A stretch of 64,000 bases of DNA from Tritrichomonas foetus (Eukaryota > Parabasalia > Tritrichomonadida > Tritrichomonadidae): assembly GCA_001839685.1 (NCBI GenBank), contig MLAK01001259.1, positions 104,235-168,234 on the forward strand, given 5' to 3'. This document shows positions 17,842 to 52,665 of the stretch, one piece after another (position 1 is the stretch's first letter; each line of letters starts with the position of its first letter). Below the pieces are notes generated by a model. That model worked only from the letters and a program-made list of their open reading frames with translations. It did not search any database and had not been told where the DNA came from. The position numbers and the translations under genes were made by a program.

Positions 17842-19678
17842 ATGAGTTTTCTTAGTCGACTTTTCTCATTCACCGAATTAGTTCAACCAGAAAAAAATAA
17901 TATCATACCATACTTTAACCCACAATGTCCATCCAAACCTCGACGAAAACGCATCAATAATTTTCGTAAATTATTATCAAACCCAACGAATGATGTTGCT
18001 TGCCAAACTGTTGCATCACAATTTACTAAGGCTAATACGCGACAAGCCAAACTAATACTTCCAGAAGTAAGAAATATCACAGATAATTTTGACAATTCTG
18101 TTGACAATTCTGCTGACAACTCTGTTGACAACTCTATTAATAAATCTAACCACGAATCTATTGACAAACATATTAATAATTTTAATGACGTATCGATTAA
18201 TAATTCTAATGAAAATATTAATTTGAATATAAACCTAATCAGTGAAGTAAAGAAGCCAATTAATAGAATTGCCGTATTAAACATTCCATTTAATGTCAAA
18301 AATAAACCAAAAAAATATACACTAAACCTAAAAAAAAATAATTTTATCAAATCAACACTAAATTTTAACTTTTTGGAAGGCAAAAAGATTTTGCAAAAAC
18401 TTTCGTCTAAAGAAAAATTGGAGTATGGGGAACTTCAAAAGATTAGTAATGAAACTCTCATTAACATTAATACATTAAAATCATGGCGCTACCAAATTTT
18501 GTCGAAGAAAAAAACGATAGCCAGTTTTTTGATTAATAAAAAGGGAGGAAGACATCGAATATTTTCAAATGCAGATGAACAACAGATCTTCAAAAGTATT
18601 GTGGAAAAAATGGATTGTTGTTTAGATATCGACGATATCAAAGACATAGCAATGACCCACTTTTTAAAAACAGAAAGAGATCGATTGTATCTTGAGAAAA
18701 TTAAATCATTGAATTTGACAACAGAAGAAGAAAAAAAGCAATTAAAAGATTTGATAGATTCAATGAGTGATCAGGAAGTTGATTCACTCATTGAAATCCG
18801 ATTTCATGGTTCTTATAAATGGATTCATAGCTTTTTACAAAGATACAATTTCTGTTTCACCAAGACTAAAACAAGTAAAGAAGGAATTATTGATGAAATT
18901 TATTCGCAGAACTATGTTATTAGTTTAGTTGAAGCTTTCCATCAATTTCCAACCAATAAAATTATCAATATAGATGAAACTTGTGTAAACTATGTTAATG
19001 AACCATTTCGTATGCTTTCAATTAAAGGAAAATCACATTCTGTCAATATTCCAACACAAAAACAAAGTTTCACAAGCATAGGGATTATTGATTCAGAANN
19101 NNNNNNNNNNNNNNNNNNNNNNNNNNNNNNNNNNNNNNNNNNNNNNNNNNNNNNNNNNNNNNNNNNNNNNNNNNNNNNNNNNNNNNNNNNNNNNNNNNNN
19201 NNNNNNNNNNNNNNNNNNNNNNNNNNNNNNNNNNNNNNNNNNNNNNNNNNNNNNNNNNNNNNNNNNNNNNNNNNNNNNNNNNNNNNNNNNNNNNNNNNNN
19301 NNNNNNNNNNNNNNNNNNNNNNNNNNNNNNNNNNNNNNNNNNNNNNNNNNNNNNNNNNNNNNNNNNNNNNNNNNNNNNNNNNNNNNNNNNNNNNNNNNNN
19401 NNNNNNNNNNNNNNNNNNNNNNNNNNNNNNNNNNNNNNNNNNNNNNNNNNNNNNNNNNNNNNNNNNNNNNNNNNNNNNNNNNNNNNNNNNNNNNNNNNNN
19501 NNNNNNNNNNNNNNNNNNNNNNNNTGAAGAAGAAGAAAATTACGAAGAAGAAAACTGTCATTATATTTTTGATGACTGTGATATTAAATTCCAGTATGAA
19601 TTAGATGAAGCAACTAATGAATTGGAAGATGATTGTTTCACTATTCAATGGAAAAAATTTATTAAAAAGTATAATTAA
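17842..19678 (+). CDS. DDE transposase (CENP-B/pogo-like), interrupted by an assembly gap
   Basis: The frame starts at the ATG at 17842 with an Asn/Ser/Asp-rich head of about 180 residues. Helix-turn-helix-like DNA-binding regions follow (about 190-330; motifs KGGRHRIFS and YKWIHSFLQRYNF). Then comes the first catalytic Asp in IINIDETCVNY (about residue 380), typical of pogo/CENP-B-type DDE enzymes. The gap 19099-19524 hides the second Asp and the third acidic residue. After the gap the coherent frame (Glu-rich, then DDCDIKFQYELDE and QWKKFIKKYN) ends at 19676-19678. It is not in phase with the first part if the gap is taken at face value, so the N count is probably only an estimate. The total would be about 610 residues. 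Activity cannot be judged without the missing core. Confidence 0.8.
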
Positions 19679-35859: not shown

Positions 35860-38800
35860 ATGATTCATTTGGAGGAAAGAGATGAAGATAAGTTAGATAT
35901 ATCAAGTATTGGATTTTTACAAGATTCTCTTATTCAAATTACGGTCGATAATTTTGAGCATCAGATCGTTTCAATTCTTTCATCAAAGTATGTCAAATCA
36001 AAAAAACATATGTGTCAATTTCTTCACACTATTGATTGTGTGTGTTTGAGTCGACCACTTTTAGTGAATCTTTTGACAAAGCTTTTATCTTTCCTTTTGG
36101 ATTCAATAAAAGCTTTTTTCAGTTCAGATGAATTATGTTTTACTCTTTCACATAAAAGGATCATACTTTTATTATATGAAGAAAATATTATCAGCATTCA
36201 TTCAATTATCAAAAAATCATTCTCGGATTTTGAACTTTTTTATTATTTCTGTAAAGAAATTGAAGTTTTTGATATTAAATCTTACCAAAAAATTATTGAA
36301 GAAAATCAATGGCTTAAATATCGAATATCAAATTTGAAGTACGACGAATTTGAACAGCATCGCTCAAAAGGTGTAAATGATGATCCTTTAGCATTATCGA
36401 TTCGAAATGATGATCTTGACATGTTTCAAGCAATTCTTGAACAAACTAACTTAAAAATACATTCAAAGATTCCATTTTCTTTATTTGAAACAAGCTCTAT
36501 TGTCAATTTTCCAGAAAAAATGCCAACTTTAATTGAATATGCTGCTTTTTTTGGTTCTTTTTCAATTTTCAAATATTTATGGGAAAAGGACCCTTCTCAA
36601 AGTTCACCAAGATTAGCACACTTTGCAATTGCTGGTGGAAATGTTAAAATTTTGAATATTTTGGAAGAATGTAAAACTACAAACATTGATGAAAATTGTG
36701 TAAATACAGCAATTAGATTTAATAGAAATGATATAGTTGATTATTTACACTATCGCTATAATATTGACTTTTCTGGAACATCTTTTGCGTCAACTATAAA
36801 ATATCATAATTTTTGTTGTTTTGAACAAATTTTGGAAGAATTAAAAATTTTGTTTGATGAAAAAACTGGAAACGGTTGGAATCCTTTGCATTTTGCTGCT
36901 GAAAGTAATTCTTGTGAAATTGCTTCTTTTTTAATAAATAATTCTGCTGATGTTAATTCTACAACTAATCATGGAATTTATATTAAAAAATTTCATTTAA
37001 CACCGCTATCAATTGCCATTTGTAATGGAAATTATAATATTTTTCTTTTTTTACTATCAATAAAAGAAATAGATTTAAATATTCCTGACATTGAAGGTAT
37101 TTTATTTTGATTGGTTTATAGAACACCAATTCATTGGGCCATTATTAAACATGAAACTCAAATGGTTCAAATTTTATCAAACAAAGAAAATATTAATTTA
37201 AATCTTCTCACAAAAAACATTTTCATTTTCAAATTTATGGTGTTTTTCCTTTAAAATTTATTTCTCTCCACTTCATTTTGCTGTTTATTGTGAAACACTA
37301 GAAATTATTCAAATATTAGTTACATTAAATAAAGTAAATATTAACATTCAAGATTTCGATGGATGGACTCCTCTTCATTGGGCAGTTCATCAAAATCAAA
37401 TTAAAATAATCAATTGTTTATTATCTTTAGATGAAATTGATTTAAATATTAAAAATAAAAGCGACAGAAAACCATTCTTATTAGCAGTTGAATTAGAAAA
37501 TGTTGATTGTGCTAAAATTATTGGAAAACATCCAAAAACTGACATCAATACTAAAAATGAAAATGGTTTATCTGGTCTTCATATTGCTGGAAAAAACGGG
37601 AATTCTATTTTGTGTGAATTTTTATTAAATTTTGAGAATTGTGAAATAAATAGTCAAGATAAAAATGGATACACTGCACTTCACTATTCAGCATACTTTA
37701 ATAATTGCGATATTGTCATTATGTTAATGATTGATAGTCGTTCAGACTTAAATATACAAACGAATACCGGAATGACTGCTCTTCATTTCGCGACACTTAA
37801 AAATAATTATCATGTTGTTGAAGCTTTATTAAATTCGAGGAAAATTGATACCAATATTCAACAAAATGAAGGAATTGATTTTTTTATTTATTTGGTACCT
37901 TTACATATTGCTTGTAAAAATGGAAATTATTTCTTAGTAAGACTTTTAATGTCTATCGAGTTAACTAATGTAAATGCACAAGATGTGGAAGGCAGAACAC
38001 CTCTTCATTATGCTGTAATGAATAACCATTTAAATACTGTAATAGAGTTACTTAAATCTCCACAAATTAATGTAAATGCAAAACAAGCAGATGAATTAAC
38101 TGCACTTCATCTTGCTGCTGAAAAAAGATTTATGAATATTATTCAAGTTTTAATTCAAAATGCTGGAATTGATTTTTATACAAAATTGTCCAATGGATCA
38201 ACAGTTTTTCATGAAGCTGTTCGAAGTATGAATCTGGAATTAGTAAGAAATATTTTATCTACAAATTTTGATGTGAATTGTGCGGATGATTTTGGATGTA
38301 CTGCACTTCATATTGCTTGCCAAATTGGATTTATTGATTGCATTAAGTTATTACTTTTAAATGAAAAAATTGATGTTAATCTTCAACAAAAAGTTTTTTC
38401 TTTTCTTTTTTCATAATGTTCCAGAATTTTTTTAAAGGAGTCTTTCCATATTTTTTATAAAGTCCCTATCCATATTGCAATAGAAACAAGCAATGTTGAA
38501 ATTGTAAAGCTACTCTTATCAGATCAACGGATGAATGCAAATATAGCAACCAATGAAATTTATCTCACACATTAATGGCATTTGTGTTATTTGTTAATAT
38601 GACATCTCTACATTTTGCTTCTCTTGCAGGAAATGTTGAAATGGTTGAACTAATTTCTAATTTCCCTGGAATGGATCTAAATGCAAAAAATAGTATTTCT
38701 TTTAGTTGTTGTATCAAGTTAAAACAAATGTTATATGATGAAACCCCTTTACATTTAGCTGTTAAAAATAACCACATTGATGCTGCAATGTTGTTAGCTT

Positions 38801-38965
38801 CAAAGGAAGGAATCGATTTAAATGCAAAAGATTCGGTTTACTCATTTATTTTTATGAAGGAGTTCTTTATTTCATATTCATCAAAATCCAATGCAAGCTT
38901 TAATATCCAGAAATGAAAATGCTGTTACCATTCTATCACGAAATCCTGATTGTCATATTCAATAA
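35860..38965 (+). CDS. Ankyrin-repeat protein interrupted by 14 mini-inserts
   Basis: The N-terminal 300 residues are helical and of the type found before ankyrin repeats in trichomonad proteins (a TLIEYAAFFGS string is typical). About 18 ankyrin repeats follow to the end. Read directly, the frame breaks at 37108 (TGA) and again several times later. All breaks vanish if 14 AT-rich segments of 18-22 bp are left out; each lies in the D-x-x-G-x-T-P turn of a repeat. The remaining 2,829 bases form one frame of 942 codons that ends at 38963-38965 (TAA) with complete repeats, including a well-formed last one (DSEGQNPMQAL, then SRNPDCHIQ). Ten repeats have no insert. Ankyrin proteins of this kind are thought to bind protein partners; no enzymatic domain is present. 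Whether the mature mRNA lacks the inserts is unknown. Confidence 0.7.
36976..36996 (+). other. Ankyrin mini-insert A (21 bp)
   Basis: Begins ATTTAT and ends TTTCAT. It lies between GGA and TTA-ACA-CCG, so that removal gives NHG-L-TPL. Confidence 0.6.
37099..37119 (+). other. Ankyrin mini-insert B (21 bp) carrying the first stop codon
   Basis: Begins ATTTTA and ends GTTTAT, and contains an in-frame TGA (37108-37110). Removal joins GGT to AGA-ACA-CCA and gives IEG-R-TPIHWA. Confidence 0.65.
37219..37261 (+). other. Ankyrin mini-inserts D1 and D2 (20 + 20 bp) around a Gly codon
   Basis: D1 is 37219-37238, D2 is 37242-37261, separated by GGT. Both end TTTAT. Together they shift the frame by one; removing both gives TKNG-F-SPLHFAV. 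Confidence 0.65.
37874..37891 (+). other. Ankyrin mini-insert C (18 bp)
   Basis: Reads ATTGAT...TTTAT and keeps the frame. Removal gives NEG-LV-PLHIA. Confidence 0.55.
38393..38458 (+). other. Ankyrin mini-inserts E1, E2, E3 (22 + 19 + 19 bp)
   Basis: E1 38393-38414, E2 38418-38436, E3 38440-38458, separated by AAT and GGA. Removing all three gives QQKNG-KV-PIHIA. E2 is the least typical (it ends AAA) and its borders are the least certain. Confidence 0.55.
38558..38598 (+). other. Ankyrin mini-inserts F1 and F2 (19 + 19 bp)
   Basis: F1 38558-38576, F2 38580-38598, separated by GGC. Both begin ATTT and end TTAAT. Removal gives TNEG-MT-SLHFA. Confidence 0.65.
38695..38736 (+). other. Ankyrin mini-inserts G1 and G2 (20 + 19 bp)
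   Basis: G1 38695-38714, G2 38718-38736, separated by CAA. Removal gives NAKNSQDE-TPLHLAV. Confidence 0.55.
38836..38881 (+). other. Ankyrin mini-inserts H1 and H2 (20 + 20 bp)
   Basis: H1 38836-38855, H2 38862-38881, separated by GAAGGA. Both begin GTT and end AT. Removal gives NAKDSEG-QN-PMQAL and opens the frame to the final TAA at 38963. Confidence 0.65.
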
Positions 38966-39173: not shown

Positions 39174-42100
39174 CTAAAATGGAAGCGCCTTTGGTATCAA
39201 TCTTGCATATGAATCTTGTGTGATCAAAGCCATTCCTCTAGTTTGAAGAATGTATTTCATTTCCAGTACACGTGTTTTGCATTGATAAAAAACTTCATCG
39301 AATTTTACATAAAATGCTTCACTCATTCTAATTTGATTCTTTGTATCGGAAATTGCTACAAAGTCAATTCCACGTTCACATGACCAAGCCGTCCATTTAT
39401 CAATTTCAAAATCGATTTTGACGCGTCGAATGATTTTTCCAACTAATGAGACTAAGAATAGCTCAGATCCAGAAGCTACCAAAATGTATCCAAATTCTGG
39501 TGTGATTAAGATTTTTGTTGGTTCAGCAGAAAGTTTAATAATGAAATTCAGAATTCCAGTATGATAAGAATAAACTGCTAATTCCGCATTTGATGTTCCA
39601 CAAGCAACAATTCCGAATTTTTGACTGAGAGCCATTGATGAAATATAATCAGTTGCAATATAACAAAAATGGAAATGTTCTTGAAAATCATGATGATCCC
39701 ATCCAATGATTTCTCCATTGATATTTGCAGCTGCAACCATGCTTCCAGATGATGCTAAACAATTAATATGTCGAATATCAATATCAACATTTGTAATCGA
39801 TCGTTCTTTCATTATATATAAAATATGTTTTATATCATCAATGGCAACATAACCATGCTCATATTCGCAAACAAAAAGGTTGGATGGAATTGATCCAATC
39901 GTTGTTGTTGATCGATTCAAAGGGGTTACAAAATCAAGACGAACGTTTAAAACAGCTCCTTCTTTAGTATAAGCCAAAAATTTAATAGCAGCGTATTCAT
40001 TTTCAACTATTGTTGCATTGACAATCTCCTGTTTCGTGTCAATAGCAACCGATAAAGTGGTATTAAATGTTGGTTGCCTTGACAGAAGAACCTTTTGAGG
40101 GTGAGGTTTATGAAAAAGCTGTGCAGGCATGTGTCCAATTTTTTTAAGGTTAGAAACAAGAGTTTCTGATTCAGAAACAGTGGCCATTTCTGAAAAAAGA
40201 ACGGTATTAAATACATTTTCTGAATGAAGGGCTCCTTTTTTCCGAGAGTTCACACCGAATATCATATCGATCCATTTATTCAAATACTGTGACACTTTTG
40301 GACTTTCTAGTAATTTTCTATGCATATAAATAAATTCTTCTTCATCTGAAGCCCACAATGGAAGTTCAAAATCACCAGTGAAGTAGAAAGGTGAAGTGAA
40401 AAATTCTGGAGTGAGTTCATAACAATTGGAAACTTTTGGAGATGAAGAACGATTATAACATTCTTGCATTGATTTAAATGTATCTTTGGTGAATCGAAGT
40501 TTCTCAATTTTCATATCTTTTGGAATAGAATTATAAGGCTCTATACGACTTAAATAATACGATACAAGGGTTGGTGTTGATGGCGCGAATAAATAAACAT
40601 GTGTTTGTTCTTTATTTTGAGCTGCAATTGGTTTCGATAGATCGCGATATTTGTAAATATTAAAATTATGATAATTATTACCTTCCAAATTTTCATTATA
40701 GCTGGACACAACCCATGGATATATGGGGTACATTGATGGATCATTGTAAGTTCTACCAGAAAAGTAATTCAAAATAATTAGGTATTCGAAATTTGAAAGT
40801 TTACCGTCAACCCATTGTTTCATGAAATTGGTTGATGCAAAAAAGTTTGCAGGTGAACAGGTTTGAACAAGTTGTGGATTAATGGTATTAAAGTTCGATA
40901 ATATTGTTTGTGCTTCAATTGGAGTGAAATCTACAAATATTGATGAACCATTTTTCATATAAAATTCAAGTGAATTTGGCCTATGATATCTCCATCTTAT
41001 GAAAATTCTTTTGATGTCTTTGAAATCAATTCTTTTTGTTGATTTGGCATTTATTAGTGAAATATGATTTGAAAAGAATTGGAAATATGATGGAATGACT
41101 TTCGTAAATTTAATTTGAACGCAAGTATATGCATCTTTTGGTATTTGAGGTAGGGGTGGTGGATCGATATTTGGAATCGGCGGATTATAAACTTTATTTA
41201 AAAACGGCATTATATAGGACGAATCAGATATAAATGAATGTTTATAACCTATTCGTCTATAAAGAGGATCGGACCATGGTGAATCTTCTTGCATTGACTT
41301 TTTCATTAATTTCTTTAAATCACGTGTAAATTTATATTCGCGATTATGCAATGCCTGAATAGCTGAGTCAATATGCATTGATGCAATAGCAATTTCATTA
41401 ATGTCTAAGCTTTGAAGCGCTTCTTTGGCATCATAGTCACTTTCAACAATACTTCTTCGAATTGAATCAATTATTGCTATATTTCGCTTATTATTACCAA
41501 TAGTAATTTTAGAACAGTATGATCCACATTTACTAATAAGATTTTCAATTTTTTCATTTTCTTCAAGTTTTCCATTTAATATTTTTTCGAATGTTTGTCT
41601 CCAAAAAACAATAGCATGATTAGGTGAATCTATTGTTTGGAGATAGGCTTTCATTATTTCATATAAATTTGAAAATAATGGTTTTCCATCACTTCCCAAC
41701 ACCAGGCCGAATTGATAATTATTGAACTTTTTTTGTTTAATGACTTCATTCAAAATCAATTTCAATGAATTTAAGCTTCTGTTTTGGTGTAATTCAACAT
41801 TCGTTTTTGAATTGCATTCCTTATTTATCATATCGTTTTGATTGCCGTCTGGAGTTTGTGGAGATCCAAGCCAAACAGTCTCAGGAATGTAGTAAGGTGA
41901 ATTCTGGAATTCTAAACGAAGTGCAGAATTAGGTGGATCATTTATTCTTAAAGTCATCATTTTTATGCATCTTAAAAGTATTCCTAGGGCAAGCTCTCGA
42001 TTTGATGTATCAATAAAATTACATGCAATTTTTGTCATGAACAGTCTTGCACTATCTTCTAAAGAATTATCGAAGATTCCTGCAAAAAGATCAAATGTAT

Positions 42101-45100
42101 TCAAAATAGAATCAATCGAATCAAAAATGTTATTTAAATATTCATCAACATTATATTGATCAACAACTACAACATTATATAGAAATTCAATAATATTATG
42201 ATGATCTTCAAGATTTAGTAATTTTGATAATAAAACAATTGGATAGGCACACCAATTTGGATCATACTTAAACATGATAGTGATATTTTTATCAATTTGT
42301 AATTTCGCTAAAAGAGTAGCAATTTTAGCTGCCTGCTGCGAACCCAAGTTCATTGCAATAAAAATGGATAAAGGATAAGAGCATGGATAATGACGAAGCA
42401 TTTTTGAGCACATATTAAAAAGTTCATCAGTAAAGTATAAATCATTCATTAATGAAATAATTGCATCATTATAATTATGTAAATTTCTTGGATCAGCCAT
42501 ACTATATAAAACTTTATAAGCATTAATAAATCTCATTTCTTGTTGTGGTTTAAATTGATGATAAGTTAGTCGGCAAACAGCAACGGGCATAGTAATATTC
42601 AATCGATTTCGTTGAATGATTTCTAAAAAGAGTGTTAATATTGAAAAAACTTGTTGTTGATCTTGACATGCTGCACAGTGACTAATTATTGTTCTTGCAT
42701 CATCCGGTGTAAATTTATGTGTGGCTGCTGTAAGAAGAAGCTTATTATAAGTTTGCCTGCATGATTCTATATCTAAATTTTCATCACGTGGTCTTTCAGA
42801 ATCAGGTGCACCTCTGATTAATTCGACTTCTATCGGTTTAAACCACAAATAGATTCTTGCAAGTGCAAGTAAATCAGAAAATGAAAAACATTTACTAACA
42901 ATTGATACACAAGATGGATATAAATTTTGTGCCCAATGTGTGAGAACTCTTAAGAAATGTGAACCCTCAGAATGTCCCCATATGTCAAAATTCATTAAAA
43001 TATTATAAACTAAAGCTTTTACAAGCGACGGATCATTTAAATTTTCCACAAAAGTGAAAAACTTCATATATAATGAATAAGTTAATGATTTCTGGGGACC
43101 TTTTACAAGCAAATTTCCAATTAAAGGAAAATATGGAAATTGTGATTTAGATTCAATTGTACAAAGTAATACATCCAATAATTCTTCAGAAAAATGAGGA
43201 GGCATTTCTGCGAAATATAAAAAAAATGGTGTCAAAATTCTTAAAACTTGTGGTTTTTTGAAATTTTCAACAATATTGTCATGTGCAAGCCATTCAATTC
43301 CATTTTTTTTCAATATGATATTTCGTTGTTGATTTTGTGTTGACTGTGCTCCACTAATACTAATTGGATTTAATGGTGGATAGCAGAAAAGTGGTGTTTG
43401 ATAAACATCACTCTTTCGACTACCTAGTTCACTTAATTCATTTAATTCTTCTCGGTCAAGAGCTTCATTATAAAATCGAAATGCGCCAATGTTACAAAGT
43501 GGCTCAATTGGTTCTCCACTTCCTGTTGGCGGCTCAGCAAGTCCACCAATTTGAACGACAAGTGGACCTTCAATTAATGGAGGTAAATCTAAATTAAAAG
43601 TAGCAGGTTGTGAATTATTTAAACCAAAAGAAATGGCAGATGAATTATCCTTAAATTGCTGCAGCATTAAAGTGACGCGAGTCCAAGTACATGATGGAAA
43701 TCCAGTATAAAGTGCAGCAAATGATGATCCGAGTGTAGAATTAATCCTACATACAATAGACGAACCTTGAACATATAATTGAATCTGGGTTCGACCATCA
43801 TCAGATATTTGAATAATCATTGGACGGCGATTGCAAATCATTGCAGCATGAACATCAGCAAACAAAAGGAACTGGAAAGTGAAGCCATAGTCAAGATCTG
43901 TCGATTTCAAACCTTCAAAAATAAAAACAGATTCTTCAATTCCAAGTGGTAACGACACAGCTGGTTCTTGGCATAAACGAGTAACTGTTGAGCTAAGCTG
44001 ATGAATTACTTCAGAAGCAAATCTTGGGAATTTGTGATCGCCTCCAGGAGCCATTAATGATATAATTCCAGAACTTACTTGTGGTGATGATTCATATGAC
44101 ATTATCATATTCAAAAGTGGAAGAACGTATTTCATTATATCTGTTTCTGACACAATTAAATTAAATTTACAACCACGAAATGTAAAACTATTTGGATAAT
44201 TCTTAATTAACTCAATTAATAAAAGATCGAGTTCACCTTGATGACATTGAGTGCAATTATATGCAGAATGTTGGCACAATTGTAAGAATAAACTAAGATA
44301 TTTCATTGTATCATCTTTTGTTTGGATTGTGGAAAACAATAAAATGGAAATTTTTGGTTCTTGCACGAAAAATGAAGCATTTACATTAACTGACCTACTT
44401 CGAGCCATCATTCCAATTAGTCCACAAACTGTAGCTTCACTTGGTGAAATACCATCTGATTTTCGGATAGCCACACTTAATTGTTGCATTTGAACATATG
44501 ATACTGAGTAGTTTGGTGATGATAAAAGCATTTGTGAATAAAGTTGAAGAGTTTGATCCAAAAATTTAATTGATGCTCTTACAGCCAAATACTTTGTTGA
44601 AGCTGTAATTAAAGATTCAAATTTCAATGGTAAATTTCGATTATGTATTATTGATTCATTAACTGTAAGTAAAAGATCAATTGCAACTGATTCATGCTCT
44701 TCATGGTCATCCATTGATGCACATACATCTATTATACCACAAATATATTCAATTGTTGGTACTAAAACTTCTTTTTCTTCGCCTTTAGATTTTGTAAGAA
44801 ATTGACGGAGAACTAAAATTACTGGTCGATGAAAATATGGATCAAAAATTCTTCCAAGGAAGCCACGAGTAAACACTGATGATGAAAAGCATCTGGCTGC
44901 AACAGAGGCATCTTCAATAATAGAAAAAAGGAAAATTAGAATAGTTGAGCGTGCTTGACTGATCTTTTGCAAGCCCTCTTTATCGCTTTGTGATGATAAA
45001 GTACTTAAATTACTAACAACATGAATAATTGATCCAAGTGTTGGTTCATCAGTTAATGACTCAAGATCAAATTTATCTAGATTTAAGTGTATACGACCAA

Positions 45101-46481
45101 TTACATCAGCAAAGAGATAAGGATGAACTTCAAGCTTGTGTAACAGTCTTCCAACATATTTTGGTGAATGTTTGGCAAGAATTAGAAGGGCGCTCTTACG
45201 AAGAAATGCAACTAATTCGAATTTTTCGTGTGGTTGAAAGATAGAAACACCAGGTAGGAAAACTAAATGACTGGTTATTTCGGAAAATATAGGCTCAGTG
45301 ATTACAACTTTAGTAACTTTATCTAACGAAAAAAGGAAAGAGATAAACAGTTCAAAAAAATGCTCTTTTTGTTCCGATGAATGAAGAATGTCTATAAATC
45401 CTTCAAAGAAGGTTGAAACATATGGTTGAAGAACTCGACTTAAAAGTGAAAATAAAATTTTCAGAGTAAAATTTTCATCATCACTTAATAAATCTTCATA
45501 AATGATTTGAACATGAAAATCAGAAATCGGAGGAGGATTTAAATCATTAGGCAAATTATGATGATCATGAATCTCTTCATTTTTATTACTTTCTGTATCA
45601 AGTTTGAAATAATCTTTTGAATCTGTTTTTGGAATTTTTAATGTTTCTGTTTTAACTGGTGAATTTTCAACCCTTGCCATAAAAAAGCGTGGAATATCAA
45701 AAAATGCTTCAAGTAAGCTGGCATCTTCATAAACAGAAGCCAAAGCTGCAAATAATCCCAATGTATTCACGTCATAAATGGTAAGCATTTGATGTAATGT
45801 ATTAACAATATATTCATAATTATATCCCATGTAATTATTTGGATTAGCAGAAATTTGAGCTGTCAACAAATCAGTTAAACTATGTATTGCGTCAATATTG
45901 CTATTTTTCAATAAATTTGAAATAATAATTGAAGCTGTATCAAGAAGTTGAGGATCTGGTCTTTCAAAAATAATTGGAATTAAAGAAACAGGAAAACTTT
46001 CATTTCCAAAAATGAAAAAATGTTGTGTTATATTGTTTAAACAGAAAAAATATATTTCTGGCCTTATATAATCTTGTGTAAACATCAACACTTGATTCAA
46101 AAGCATGTAATGAGGAATGATGTCTGACAAATCTGAACAACTAAGCCAATAAATTACATAAGATAGTGGAATTAAAATTATGTCTCTTGATTCAATTTGC
46201 TGCTCTTGAAAAAAATCAACACAAAAAAGTAAAATATTTGGATCAAATTGAATCAGATGTTGTGCCCTCGATAGCGCCTCAGGGTACGAGCAACCGTTTG
46301 ATAGTCTTCCTTTTATATCGAAAATCATTTGGCGATCAAAACACGGGAAAATGAAATTATTTAAAGGGGAATTTGGAATCGTGAGTGGTGGTCGTTTATT
46401 TGAAAACATAGTCAGGAGCGAGACAAATGGATTTTCATCACTGCCTTTGAGCGAAGACATGATGGAAATGCGTCGCGTCAT
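39174..46481 (-). CDS. Giant BEACH-domain protein (neurobeachin/LYST-like)
   Basis: A 2,435-residue uninterrupted protein. The N-terminal 850 residues and residues 1010-1780 are helical and armadillo-like. A concanavalin-like beta-sandwich lies near 865-1005 (GFTFQFLLFADV ... NIGAFRFYNEAL). A PH-like domain follows (about 1785-1870; TKVIPSYFQFFSNHISLI, KDIKRIFIRWRYHRPNSLEFYM). The BEACH domain (about 1885-2140) shows MKQWVDGKLSNFEYLIILNYFSGRTY, YPWVVSSY, LPLWASDEEEFI and WIDMIFGVNSRKKGA. A C-terminal WD40-type propeller occupies about 2190-2435. This is the standard architecture of neurobeachin/LYST/LRBA proteins, which act as scaffolds in vesicle traffic, lysosome size control and phagocytosis. 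Trichomonads have an expanded BEACH family. The LPPWA-type motif has Leu for the second Pro. Confidence 0.92.
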   Translation of the reverse strand: MTRRISIMSSLKGSDENPFVSLLTMFSNKRPPLTIPNSPLNNFIFPCFDRQMIFDIKGRLSNGCSYPEALSRAQHLIQFDPNILLFCVDFFQEQQIESRDIILIPLSYVIYWLSCSDLSDIIPHYMLLNQVLMFTQDYIRPEIYFFCLNNITQHFFIFGNESFPVSLIPIIFERPDPQLLDTASIIISNLLKNSNIDAIHSLTDLLTAQISANPNNYMGYNYEYIVNTLHQMLTIYDVNTLGLFAALASVYEDASLLEAFFDIPRFFMARVENSPVKTETLKIPKTDSKDYFKLDTESNKNEEIHDHHNLPNDLNPPPISDFHVQIIYEDLLSDDENFTLKILFSLLSRVLQPYVSTFFEGFIDILHSSEQKEHFFELFISFLFSLDKVTKVVITEPIFSEITSHLVFLPGVSIFQPHEKFELVAFLRKSALLILAKHSPKYVGRLLHKLEVHPYLFADVIGRIHLNLDKFDLESLTDEPTLGSIIHVVSNLSTLSSQSDKEGLQKISQARSTILIFLFSIIEDASVAARCFSSSVFTRGFLGRIFDPYFHRPVILVLRQFLTKSKGEEKEVLVPTIEYICGIIDVCASMDDHEEHESVAIDLLLTVNESIIHNRNLPLKFESLITASTKYLAVRASIKFLDQTLQLYSQMLLSSPNYSVSYVQMQQLSVAIRKSDGISPSEATVCGLIGMMARSRSVNVNASFFVQEPKISILLFSTIQTKDDTMKYLSLFLQLCQHSAYNCTQCHQGELDLLLIELIKNYPNSFTFRGCKFNLIVSETDIMKYVLPLLNMIMSYESSPQVSSGIISLMAPGGDHKFPRFASEVIHQLSSTVTRLCQEPAVSLPLGIEESVFIFEGLKSTDLDYGFTFQFLLFADVHAAMICNRRPMIIQISDDGRTQIQLYVQGSSIVCRINSTLGSSFAALYTGFPSCTWTRVTLMLQQFKDNSSAISFGLNNSQPATFNLDLPPLIEGPLVVQIGGLAEPPTGSGEPIEPLCNIGAFRFYNEALDREELNELSELGSRKSDVYQTPLFCYPPLNPISISGAQSTQNQQRNIILKKNGIEWLAHDNIVENFKKPQVLRILTPFFLYFAEMPPHFSEELLDVLLCTIESKSQFPYFPLIGNLLVKGPQKSLTYSLYMKFFTFVENLNDPSLVKALVYNILMNFDIWGHSEGSHFLRVLTHWAQNLYPSCVSIVSKCFSFSDLLALARIYLWFKPIEVELIRGAPDSERPRDENLDIESCRQTYNKLLLTAATHKFTPDDARTIISHCAACQDQQQVFSILTLFLEIIQRNRLNITMPVAVCRLTYHQFKPQQEMRFINAYKVLYSMADPRNLHNYNDAIISLMNDLYFTDELFNMCSKMLRHYPCSYPLSIFIAMNLGSQQAAKIATLLAKLQIDKNITIMFKYDPNWCAYPIVLLSKLLNLEDHHNIIEFLYNVVVVDQYNVDEYLNNIFDSIDSILNTFDLFAGIFDNSLEDSARLFMTKIACNFIDTSNRELALGILLRCIKMMTLRINDPPNSALRLEFQNSPYYIPETVWLGSPQTPDGNQNDMINKECNSKTNVELHQNRSLNSLKLILNEVIKQKKFNNYQFGLVLGSDGKPLFSNLYEIMKAYLQTIDSPNHAIVFWRQTFEKILNGKLEENEKIENLISKCGSYCSKITIGNNKRNIAIIDSIRRSIVESDYDAKEALQSLDINEIAIASMHIDSAIQALHNREYKFTRDLKKLMKKSMQEDSPWSDPLYRRIGYKHSFISDSSYIMPFLNKVYNPPIPNIDPPPLPQIPKDAYTCVQIKFTKVIPSYFQFFSNHISLINAKSTKRIDFKDIKRIFIRWRYHRPNSLEFYMKNGSSIFVDFTPIEAQTILSNFNTINPQLVQTCSPANFFASTNFMKQWVDGKLSNFEYLIILNYFSGRTYNDPSMYPIYPWVVSSYNENLEGNNYHNFNIYKYRDLSKPIAAQNKEQTHVYLFAPSTPTLVSYYLSRIEPYNSIPKDMKIEKLRFTKDTFKSMQECYNRSSSPKVSNCYELTPEFFTSPFYFTGDFELPLWASDEEEFIYMHRKLLESPKVSQYLNKWIDMIFGVNSRKKGALHSENVFNTVLFSEMATVSESETLVSNLKKIGHMPAQLFHKPHPQKVLLSRQPTFNTTLSVAIDTKQEIVNATIVENEYAAIKFLAYTKEGAVLNVRLDFVTPLNRSTTTIGSIPSNLFVCEYEHGYVAIDDIKHILYIMKERSITNVDIDIRHINCLASSGSMVAAANINGEIIGWDHHDFQEHFHFCYIATDYISSMALSQKFGIVACGTSNAELAVYSYHTGILNFIIKLSAEPTKILITPEFGYILVASGSELFLVSLVGKIIRRVKIDFEIDKWTAWSCERGIDFVAISDTKNQIRMSEAFYVKFDEVFYQCKTRVLEMKYILQTRGMALITQDSYARLIPKALPF

Positions 46482-51556: not shown

Positions 51557-52665
51557 TTCTTCAATTCTCTCTTTCTCCAATTCTCTCTTTCTCCAATTCT
51601 CTCTTTCTCCAATTCTCTCTTTCTCCAATTCTCTCTTTCTCCAATTCTCTCTTTCTCCAATTCTCTCTTTCTCCAATTCTCTCTTTCTCCAATTCTCTCT
51701 TTCTCCAATTCTCTCTTTCTCCAATTCTCTCTTTCTCCAATTCTCTCTTTNNNNNNNNNNNNNNNNNNNNNNNNNNNNNNNNNNNNNNNNNNNNNNNNNN
51801 NNNNNNNNNNNNNNNNNNNNNNNNNNNNNNNNNNNNNNNNNNNNNNNNNNNNNNNNNNNNNNNNNNNNNNNNNNNNNNNNNNNNNNNNNNNNNNNNNNNN
51901 NNNNNNNNNNNNNNNNNNNNNNNNNNNNNNNNNNNNNNNNNNNNNNNNNNNNNNNNNNNNNNNNNNNNNNNNNNNNNNNNNNNNNNNNNNNNNNNNNNNN
52001 NNNNNNNNNNNNNNNNNNNNNNNNNNNNNNNNNNNNNNNNNNNNNNNNNNNNNNNNNNNNNNNNNNNNNNNNNNNNNNNNNNNNNNNNNNNNNNNNNNNN
52101 NNNNNNNNNNNNNNNNNNNNNNNNNNNNNNNNNNNNNNNNNNNNNNNNNNNNNNNNNNNNNNNNNNNNNNNNNNNNNNNNNNNNNNNNNNNNNNNNNNNN
52201 NNNNNNNNNNNNNNNNNNNNNNNNNNNNNNNNNNNNNNNNNNNNNNNNNNNNNNNNNNNNNNNNNNNNNNNNNNNNNNNNNNNNNNNNNNNNNNNNNNNN
52301 NNNNNNNNNNNNNNNNNNNNNNNNNNNNNNNNNNNNNNNNNNNNNNNNNNNNNNNNNNNNNNNNNNNNNNNNNNNNNNNNNNNNNNNNNNNNNNNNNNNN
52401 NNNNNNNNNNNNNNNNNNNNNNNNNNNNNNNNNNNNNNNNNNNNNNNNNNNNNNNNNNNNNNNNNNNNNNNNNNNNNNNNNNNNNNNNNNNNNNNNNNNN
52501 NNNNNNNNNNNNNNNNNNNNNNNNNNNNNNNNNNNNNNNNNNNNNNNNNNNNNNNNNNNNNNNNNNNNNNNNNNNNNNNNNNNNNNNNNNNNNNNNNNNN
52601 NNNTCTTTCTTCAATTCTCTCTTTCTTCAATTTTATCTTTCTTCAATTCTCTCTTTATTTAATTG
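51557..52665. repeat. 16-bp minisatellite with an internal assembly gap
   Basis: The unit ATTCTCTCTTTCTCCA repeats nearly perfectly about 12 times before the gap (51751-52603). After the gap come variant units with CTTCA in place of CTCCA and one with TTTTATC. Because the unit has no stop in some readings, open frames run on both strands (Arg/Lys/Glu on minus, Ser/Leu/Phe on plus), with a 16-residue period. These frames have no other protein features and I do not take them as genes. The gap length is unresolved. The array lies between the tectonic and YbjN-like genes. Confidence 0.9.

What the first reader, a model, noticed from the sequence alone, without database searches (positions are those of the whole stretch)
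35860..38965. Ankyrin gene whose frame is restored by removing 14 inserts of 18-22 bp
Read directly the gene has a TGA at 37108 and several frame changes. Each break falls in the D-x-x-G-x-T-P-L-H turn of an ankyrin repeat. Leaving out 14 short AT-rich segments (36976-36996, 37099-37119, 37219-37238, 37242-37261, 37874-37891, 38393-38414, 38418-38436, 38440-38458, 38558-38576, 38580-38598, 38695-38714, 38718-38736, 38836-38855, 38862-38881; 277 bp in all) gives one frame of 942 codons with complete repeats to the end. A decaying pseudogene would be expected to gather breaks at random places and of random kinds, not one kind of insert at one structural position. Possible explanations: ultrashort introns, ribosome bypassing, another form of excision, or a pseudogene in which an insert-bearing repeat was amplified.
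Basis: partly seen in the sequence, partly recalled or inferred. Interest (0 to 1): 0.9.

Follow-up and report, generated by a model that had tools for sequence, protein, structure and literature searches.

The report
Ultrashort intron-like inserts in ankyrin loops
In the cattle parasite Tritrichomonas foetus, a set of ankyrin-repeat genes is cut by AT-rich inserts of about 20 bases at the tip of the repeat, sometimes between every codon of the tip, and the sequence evidence suggests that the cell removes them, perhaps as a new kind of very short intron.

Summary
The genome is Tritrichomonas foetus. All 14 inserts are present: 18-22 nt, all starting (G/A)T, 13 of 14 ending AT. Similar inserts occur in ankyrin genes on 16 other contigs. 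Extra length in the D-x-x-G-x-T-P loop clusters at 17-22, 36-44, 57-62 and 80 nt, i.e. one to four inserts, often one codon apart. An end motif learnt from 18 single-insert loops, used alone on 24 held-out multi-insert loops, recovers the loop glycine in 13 of 24 (22 of 960 in shuffles) and gives no stop (241 of 960). Two paralogs carry a canonical GTATGT...CTAACAYRCAG intron in the same loop, one codon from a 19-nt insert, and coding downstream looks conserved by selection, which argues against decay. 58 of 59 modelled inserts lack AG, and take-off and landing codons never match (0 of 56), against ordinary GT-AG introns and T4-type bypassing. Best reading: a new class of ultrashort RT-AT introns multiplied at the ankyrin beta-turn. 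No RNA data were available: removal is inferred, not shown.

The parts
35860..38965 (+). DUF3447 + ankyrin-repeat gene of T. foetus interrupted by 14 inserts
   Evidence: (Ank_2 8.8e-20 and 3.5e-49, DUF3447 1.4e-9 in the two uninterrupted pieces tested)
36976..36996 (+). insert 1 (21 nt, AT..AT), loop boundary 7|8
37099..37119 (+). insert 2 (21 nt, AT..AT), 7|8; contains the TGA at 37108
37219..37238 (+). insert 3 (20 nt, AT..AT), 6|7
37242..37261 (+). insert 4 (20 nt, GT..AT), 7|8; codon GGT stands between inserts 3 and 4
37874..37891 (+). insert 5 (18 nt, AT..AT), 7|8
38393..38414 (+). insert 6 (22 nt, GT..AT), 5|6
38418..38436 (+). insert 7 (19 nt, GT..AAA), 6|7; single codons AAT and GGA on either side
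38440..38458 (+). insert 8 (19 nt, GT..AT), 7|8
38558..38576 (+). insert 9 (19 nt, AT..AT), 6|7
38580..38598 (+). insert 10 (19 nt, AT..AT), 7|8; codon GGC between 9 and 10
38695..38714 (+). insert 11 (20 nt as given; GT..AT if 38693-38714), 5|6 region; borders ambiguous
38718..38736 (+). insert 12 (19 nt as given; 17 nt if 38718-38734), 6|7 region; borders ambiguous
38836..38855 (+). insert 13 (20 nt, GT..AT), 5|6
38862..38881 (+). insert 14 (20 nt, GT..AT), 7|8; codons GAA GGA between 13 and 14

Best explanation
The inserts are ultrashort introns of an undescribed type: 17-22 nt, T-rich, beginning RTT (GT or AT) and ending TTNAY, mostly AT. They are removed from the pre-mRNA one by one, so that single codons between two inserts stay in the message. 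They spread in the ankyrin family by duplication of repeats and genes and by repeated gain at adjacent codon boundaries of the beta-turn loop, where small errors of excision would be tolerated. Shown: their existence, recurrence, ends, sizes, positions, the codons between them, the canonical intron in the same loop of two paralogs, and conserved coding downstream. Inferred: removal at the RNA level, by the spliceosome, with a 3' border just after a branch-site-like A instead of at AG; the way they spread.
For: Similar inserts in other ankyrin genes. Of 61 displaced loops among 309 repeat bodies, 17 have 17-22 nt extra, 15 have 36-44, 6 have 57-62, 1 has 80; of these 39, 18 are multiples of three; of the other 22, 20 are multiples of three, as ordinary in-frame variation or mis-anchoring would give (cluster limits drawn by eye). 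Ends learnt from 18 single-insert loops without phase constraint: (G/A)TTTTT and TT[TAC]AT. Ends alone on 24 held-out multi-insert loops: G7 in 13 of 24 (9 of 19 without the window's loops) vs 22 of 960 shuffles and 314 of 4800 random parses; stops 0 of 24 vs 241 of 960 and 640 of 4800; phase 0 in 42 of 56 inserts vs 893 of 2240. In the 35 of 42 loops that pass an end-score filter, 59 inserts: +1 G or A 59, +2 T 58, -2 A 57, length a multiple of three 12. L047: D4|19|E|19|N|21|G|21|W. Paralogs L040 and L044: GTATGT...CTAACACACAG (542 nt) and GTATGT...CTAACATGCAG (89 nt) at 6|7, then one codon (D7), then a 19-nt insert at 7|8 in both; L040 has a further 19-nt insert at 5|6; at two other homologous loops one paralog has an insert and the other is intact. 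Downstream of that loop: 31 codons dN 0.33, dS 1.14; 367 codons dN 0.57, dS 1.28. Codon-model scan: 20 of 24 frame switches lie, by my reading, in ankyrin loops and the other 4 at N bases.
Against: No RNA or peptide evidence. 58 of 59 inserts lack a terminal AG, which all 63 T. vaginalis introns have (section of PMC12316389 read). A one-codon exon between two 20-nt introns seems sterically hard (my judgement). Phase 0 is far commoner (56 of 59 filtered, 63 of 74 unfiltered with codon scores; 42 of 56 by ends alone) than in T. vaginalis introns (25, 9 and 19 in phases 0, 1, 2), which hints at a codon-aware step or descent from few insertions. The inserts seem confined to one family and one loop. 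10 of 24 multi-insert loops were reached by at least one of 40 shuffles. dS is near saturation, and for a 40-codon piece it could not be computed; a separate start of translation downstream of the inserts is not excluded.
Confidence: 0.62

Rival explanations
1. Each interrupted loop is removed as one longer intron of 17-90 nt, from the first RT to the last AT; the codons that stand between inserts are not in the message and the loop is one to three residues shorter.
For: Avoids single-codon exons. The longest case (L047, about 90 nt) is within the 56-196 nt of long T. vaginalis introns.
Against: The codons between inserts are the ones the loop needs: G7 recovered by ends alone in 13 of 24 against 2.3% in shuffles and 6.5% in random parses, and no stops. 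Lengths cluster near multiples of 20 nt. In L044 a complete canonical intron ends three bases before a 19-nt insert.
Confidence: 0.13
2. Excision by another route: a non-spliceosomal RNA enzyme, or removal from DNA in an expressed copy.
For: Almost no AG; restriction to one gene family and one loop in the loci seen; strong codon-boundary bias.
Against: A canonical intron shares the loop in two paralogs. None of 59 inserts starts TA, so no Paramecium-type IES border (that border is recalled). The sequenced DNA of cultured cells carries the inserts (PMC5399258, main text read).
Confidence: 0.1
3. Programmed ribosome bypassing: the mRNA keeps the inserts and ribosomes skip them, as in T4 gene 60 or Magnusiomyces mitochondria.
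For: Most inserts are in phase 0; single codons between inserts are natural for a ribosome; [quoted passage not shown]
Against: The codon before the insert equals its last triplet in 0 of 56. A few loops parse best in phase 1 or 2 (3 of 59; 11 of 74 unfiltered). Fourteen hops in one gene would be very inefficient outside relaxed mitochondrial decoding (my judgement). The neighbouring canonical introns are unexplained.
Confidence: 0.07
4. Pseudogenes in which one insert-bearing repeat was amplified.
For: Ankyrin arrays grow by repeat duplication (recalled); the genome has at least 200 Ank_2 matches; many frames are short (28 of 150 listed Ank_2 rows under 200 aa against 4 of 150 listed LRR_5 rows).
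Against: Frames between inserts stay open and ankyrin-like; insert lengths are not frame-keeping while the codons around them are; coding downstream of an insert shared by old paralogs is conserved; canonical introns and inserts share a loop.
Confidence: 0.08

Closest known systems
Type B introns of Trichomonas vaginalis (23-25 nt, 24 known)
   Same: Same phylum; ultrashort; T-rich; start GT. From the published positions (last A of CTAA at -8, one base deleted in the shortest) the distance from the 5' end to that A is 17-18 nt by my arithmetic; here the near-invariant penultimate A lies 16-21 nt from the start, most often 18-19 (section of PMC12316389 read).
   Different: All 63 T. vaginalis introns are GT-AG with a branch site fused to the 3' motif, and multiple introns per transcript are absent; here 58 of 59 lack AG, 14 of 59 start AT, and up to four lie in one 12-nt loop.
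Stentor coeruleus introns (15-16 nt) and Bigelowiella natans introns (18 nt cited in PMC12316389)
   Same: As short or shorter; Stentor introns are very AT-rich (passages of PMC9505925; passage of PMC12316389).
   Different: Stentor introns mostly start GU and end AG. That they are not tied to one protein loop is recalled.
Bypassed blocks of Magnusiomyces mitochondria and the T4 gene 60 gap
   Same: Many short blocks that break frames and are skipped (passages of PMC5009743).
   Different: Mitochondrial or phage; T4 uses matched GGA codons, which have no counterpart here (0 of 56).
U12-type introns (features recalled)
   Same: Can start AT or GT and need not end AG.
   Different: Only 2 of 59 inserts have A at +3 as RTATCC would need; far shorter. 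Branch motif not tested.

Membership tests
Ankyrin-repeat / DUF3447 proteins of trichomonads | Pfam matches above curated cut-off | tested here: met
   Ank_2 71.5 and 165.7 bits (cut-off 27.3), DUF3447 38.2 bits (cut-off 26.9)
GT-AG spliceosomal introns | GT at the 5' end | tested here: inconclusive
   44 of 59 GT, 14 AT, 1 GC; unfiltered 50 of 74 GT, 19 AT
GT-AG spliceosomal introns | AG at the 3' end | tested here: not met
   1 of 59 ends AG, 49 end AT; unfiltered 1 of 74 and 61 of 74
GT-AG spliceosomal introns | Absent from mature mRNA | not testable with these tools
   No transcripts held; the listed hits of protein searches show no spliced product of these genes
T. vaginalis type B introns | 23-25 nt, CTAA at -11 to -8, AG | tested here: not met
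   Lengths 17-22; A at -2 in 57 of 59; AG in 1 of 59
T. vaginalis type B introns | Poly-T body | tested here: met
   T 60.5%, A 24.7%, G 7.6%, C 7.1% in 59 inserts
Type A trichomonad introns (the neighbours in L040 and L044, not the inserts) | GTATGT start and CTAACAYRCAG end | tested here: met
   L040 4632-5173 and L044 1631-1719
[quoted passage not shown]
   0 of 56; not strict in yeast mitochondria
Paramecium-type IES | TA at both borders (recalled) | tested here: not met
   0 of 59 start TA
Pseudogene | Relaxed selection, random lesions | tested here: not met
   dS near saturation

The most novel reading that the evidence does not exclude
T. foetus, and perhaps its near relatives, has a mode of RNA excision that needs no 3' AG: it cuts out 17-22-nt RT...TNAY segments whose 3' border lies one base past the branch-site-like A, and it can do so four times within one 12-nt ankyrin loop, leaving single-codon exons. 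Because it is confined to the binding loops of ankyrin repeats, skipping or keeping single codons could diversify those loops.
Probability: 0.3. Interest if true: 0.97.

Novelty: new variant of a known kind. Interest (0 to 1): 0.87.

Why it matters
If the inserts are removed as introns they would be, to my knowledge, among the shortest introns, an ultrashort class without AG, and an extreme packing of introns and single-codon exons. It would test how small a spliceosomal intron can be and how a 3' border is chosen. It also means that T. foetus ankyrin gene models can be cut short: deposited TRFO_10537 ends with the read-out of such an insert.

Tried and rejected
Viral contigs for relatives of P0001: no relative. 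Protein searches for a spliced product: none seen (71 hits, best 35% identity, the window's own protein not among them; 120 of 5035 listed; 120 of 1717 listed). Of the 191 proteins end within 21 residues of a loop start (16 of 71 and 10 of 120); some have insert-like tails (P0001, P0009, P0051), a weak hint of such inserts in other species, since contig ends are not excluded. LRR_5 and kinase loci could not be cut out, so only listed frame lengths were compared (150 of 200 Ank_2 and 150 of 166 LRR_5 matches listed). Two listed LRR_5 rows and one kinase row have in-frame stops; kinase matches force long frames, so LRR_5 is the fairer control. The codon-model scan is insensitive: it missed the frame changes of the window's own gene. 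It also showed in-frame stops in two frames without ankyrin bodies (L021, L023).

Seven of 42 failed the end-score filter. By ends alone 10 of 24 multiple and 5 of 18 single (training) loops were reached by a shuffle; L033 4670 and L048 1536 do not fit at all. 100 of 309 bodies had no clear left anchor. My first repeat regex found too few repeats and was replaced.

Papers: the rows listed by searches (open-licence PMC text; lists capped, for example 15 of 280 and 25 of 45) show no title or abstract on ultrashort or AG-less inserts in Tritrichomonas ankyrin genes; subscription papers are not covered. The KV-1 genome paper gives introns averaging 175 bp, range 5-898, at most two exons per gene (passages of PMC11415386).
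Full report
What it is. The window is C863:104235-168234 of a 63.7-Mb genome in 1064 contigs. A protein named TRFO_10537 of Tritrichomonas foetus matches that genome at 100% over 373 of 373 residues, so the genome is T. foetus; that the TRFO tag marks the strain K assembly is recalled. The strain K draft is an Illumina and 454 assembly of 68.5 Mb annotated with a bacterial pipeline (PMC5399258, main text read). The gene at 35860-38965 encodes a DUF3447 domain and ankyrin repeats.

Check of the observation. All begin A or G followed by T, and 13 end AT. In loop numbering N1 x x D4 x5 x6 G7 x8 T9 P L H they lie between codons 5|6, 6|7 and 7|8. Where two or three share a loop, the codons between them are GGT, AAT and GGA, GGC, CAA (ambiguous loop), and GAA GGA.

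It is not confined to the window. A repeat profile built from these loci found inserts of similar size and ends in other ankyrin genes. Over the window and L021-L050, 309 repeat bodies were examined: 148 had an intact loop, 100 had no clear left anchor, 61 were displaced. Of the 61, 39 fall in four clusters (17-22, 36-44, 57-62 and 80 nt; 17, 15, 6 and 1 loops; limits drawn by eye) and 18 of the 39 are multiples of three; of the other 22, 20 are multiples of three (one window loop, 37894, was mis-anchored there, its true excess being 18). The extra length thus comes in units of about 20 nt. In the 80-nt case, L047, every codon boundary from D4 to x8 is interrupted: D, 19 nt, GAA, 19 nt, AAC, 21 nt, GGT, 21 nt, TGG.

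Held-out test. End motifs were learnt from 18 single-insert loops (three of them the window's), with insert position free in all phases: 5' (G/A)TTTTT, 3' TT[TAC]AT. Used alone, without coding information, on 24 multi-insert loops (five of them the window's), they gave glycine at position 7 in 13 of 24 (9 of 19 outside the window), no stop in 24, and 42 of 56 inserts in phase 0. Dinucleotide shuffles gave 22 of 960, 241 of 960 and 893 of 2240; random parses of the real loops gave glycine in 314 and stops in 640 of 4800. Loop by loop the ends are less decisive: 14 of 24 were never reached by 40 shuffles, 10 were. With codon scores added, all 42 loops give 74 inserts: starts GT 50, AT 19, others 5; ends AT 61, AA 7, AC 3, TT 2, AG 1; phases 0, 1, 2 in 63, 8, 3. 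The 35 loops that pass an end-score filter hold 59 inserts on 17 sources including the window: G or A at +1 in 59, T at +2 in 58, A at -2 in 57; ends AT 49, AA 5, AC 2, TT 2, AG 1; lengths 17-22; 12 a multiple of three; phases 56, 2, 1. The filtered figures are sharpened by the model and filter; borders in single-insert loops are mostly fixed by the codons.

Where they are not. A codon-usage scan of both strands of the window and L021-L050 found 24 frame switches: 20 by my reading in ankyrin loops, 4 at N bases. Labelled coding was 54.5 kb in 34 groups with an ankyrin body and 134.2 kb in 97 groups without. The scan is insensitive and missed the window gene. Among listed rows of family searches, 28 of 150 Ank_2 rows lie in open frames under 200 aa, against 4 of 150 LRR_5 rows (rows from one gene are not independent).

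The paralog pair. L040 (C574) and L044 (C331) share five collinear repeat pairs in the list and a C-terminal region. In loop A, L044 reads D N A, a GTATGT...CTAACATGCAG intron of 89 nt, codon GAT, a 19-nt insert, then R T P L H; L040 reads D N, a 19-nt insert, codon TCA, a GTATGT...CTAACACACAG intron of 542 nt, codon GAC, a 19-nt insert, then R T P L H. In the next loop L040 is intact (D K N G F) and L044 has a 20-nt insert (D R, insert, N G F); in the one after, L040 has a 20-nt insert and L044 is intact. So inserts come or go precisely, and share their positions with canonical introns. Downstream of the shared insert the protein is conserved: 31 codons dN 0.33, dS 1.14; the last piece (367 codons, 41% identity) dN 0.57, dS 1.28; a 40-codon piece, which on the L040 side runs into the loop C insert, had dN 0.45 and a saturated dS. 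These ratios are rough, and a separate downstream start is not excluded.

Mechanism. Decay is disfavoured by the frame-keeping codons and the conserved downstream coding. Bypassing of the T4 kind is disfavoured because the codon before the insert never equals its last triplet (0 of 56), although several Magnusiomyces sites also lack perfect matches. An ordinary GT-AG intron does not fit the missing AG. What fits is an intron built of a 5' RT, a T-run and a branch-site-like TTNAY at its very end (48 of 59 end YTNAY). The distance from the 5' end to that A, mostly 18-19 nt, is close to the 17-18 nt implied by published T. vaginalis type B introns (my arithmetic). I therefore suggest introns whose 3' border has moved up to the branch site. 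What stays uneasy: single-codon exons, the phase-0 bias, and the restriction to one loop, which may reflect spread by repeat duplication, tolerance of imprecise excision at an exposed turn, or a use of the variation.

Known relatives. T. vaginalis has 63 active introns, all GT-AG (PMC12316389, one section and passages read). Stentor has 15-16-nt introns, mostly GU-AG (passages of PMC9505925). Magnusiomyces mitochondria have 81 bypassed blocks (passages of PMC5009743). None of these combines the features seen here.

Noticed in passing
L042 1-2760 (C448:66800-69559): An ankyrin gene in which 14 repeat bodies lack an intact loop while a few are intact; inserts of 17 to about 60 nt, with ends TTAAC, TTGAC and CTCAT besides TTTAT.
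   Followed up: partly
L050 (C853, TRFO_10537): The deposited protein ends EHGVFLNMLI, the read-out of a 20-nt insert by eye; ankyrin coding continues behind it in another frame.
   Followed up: partly
L040 4632-5173, L044 1631-1719: Canonical type A introns (GTATGT...CTAACAYRCAG) in T. foetus ankyrin loops; L046 near 1485 has CTAACATCAG followed by GAT and a 19-nt insert.
   Followed up: yes
window 19099-19524 and 51751-52603: Assembly gaps (N runs), the first inside a coding region.
   Followed up: no
window 39174-46481 (-): Uninterrupted 2435-codon BEACH-domain gene beside the interrupted ankyrin gene.
   Followed up: no
proteins P0001, P0003, P0009, P0051, P0058: DUF3447-type proteins that end shortly after an ankyrin loop start with insert-like tails; may mark such inserts in other species.
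   Followed up: partly
window 35884-37107: The window's own ORF was not among the 71 protein hits, so this gene seems missing from the deposited proteins within the length limits of the search.
   Followed up: no
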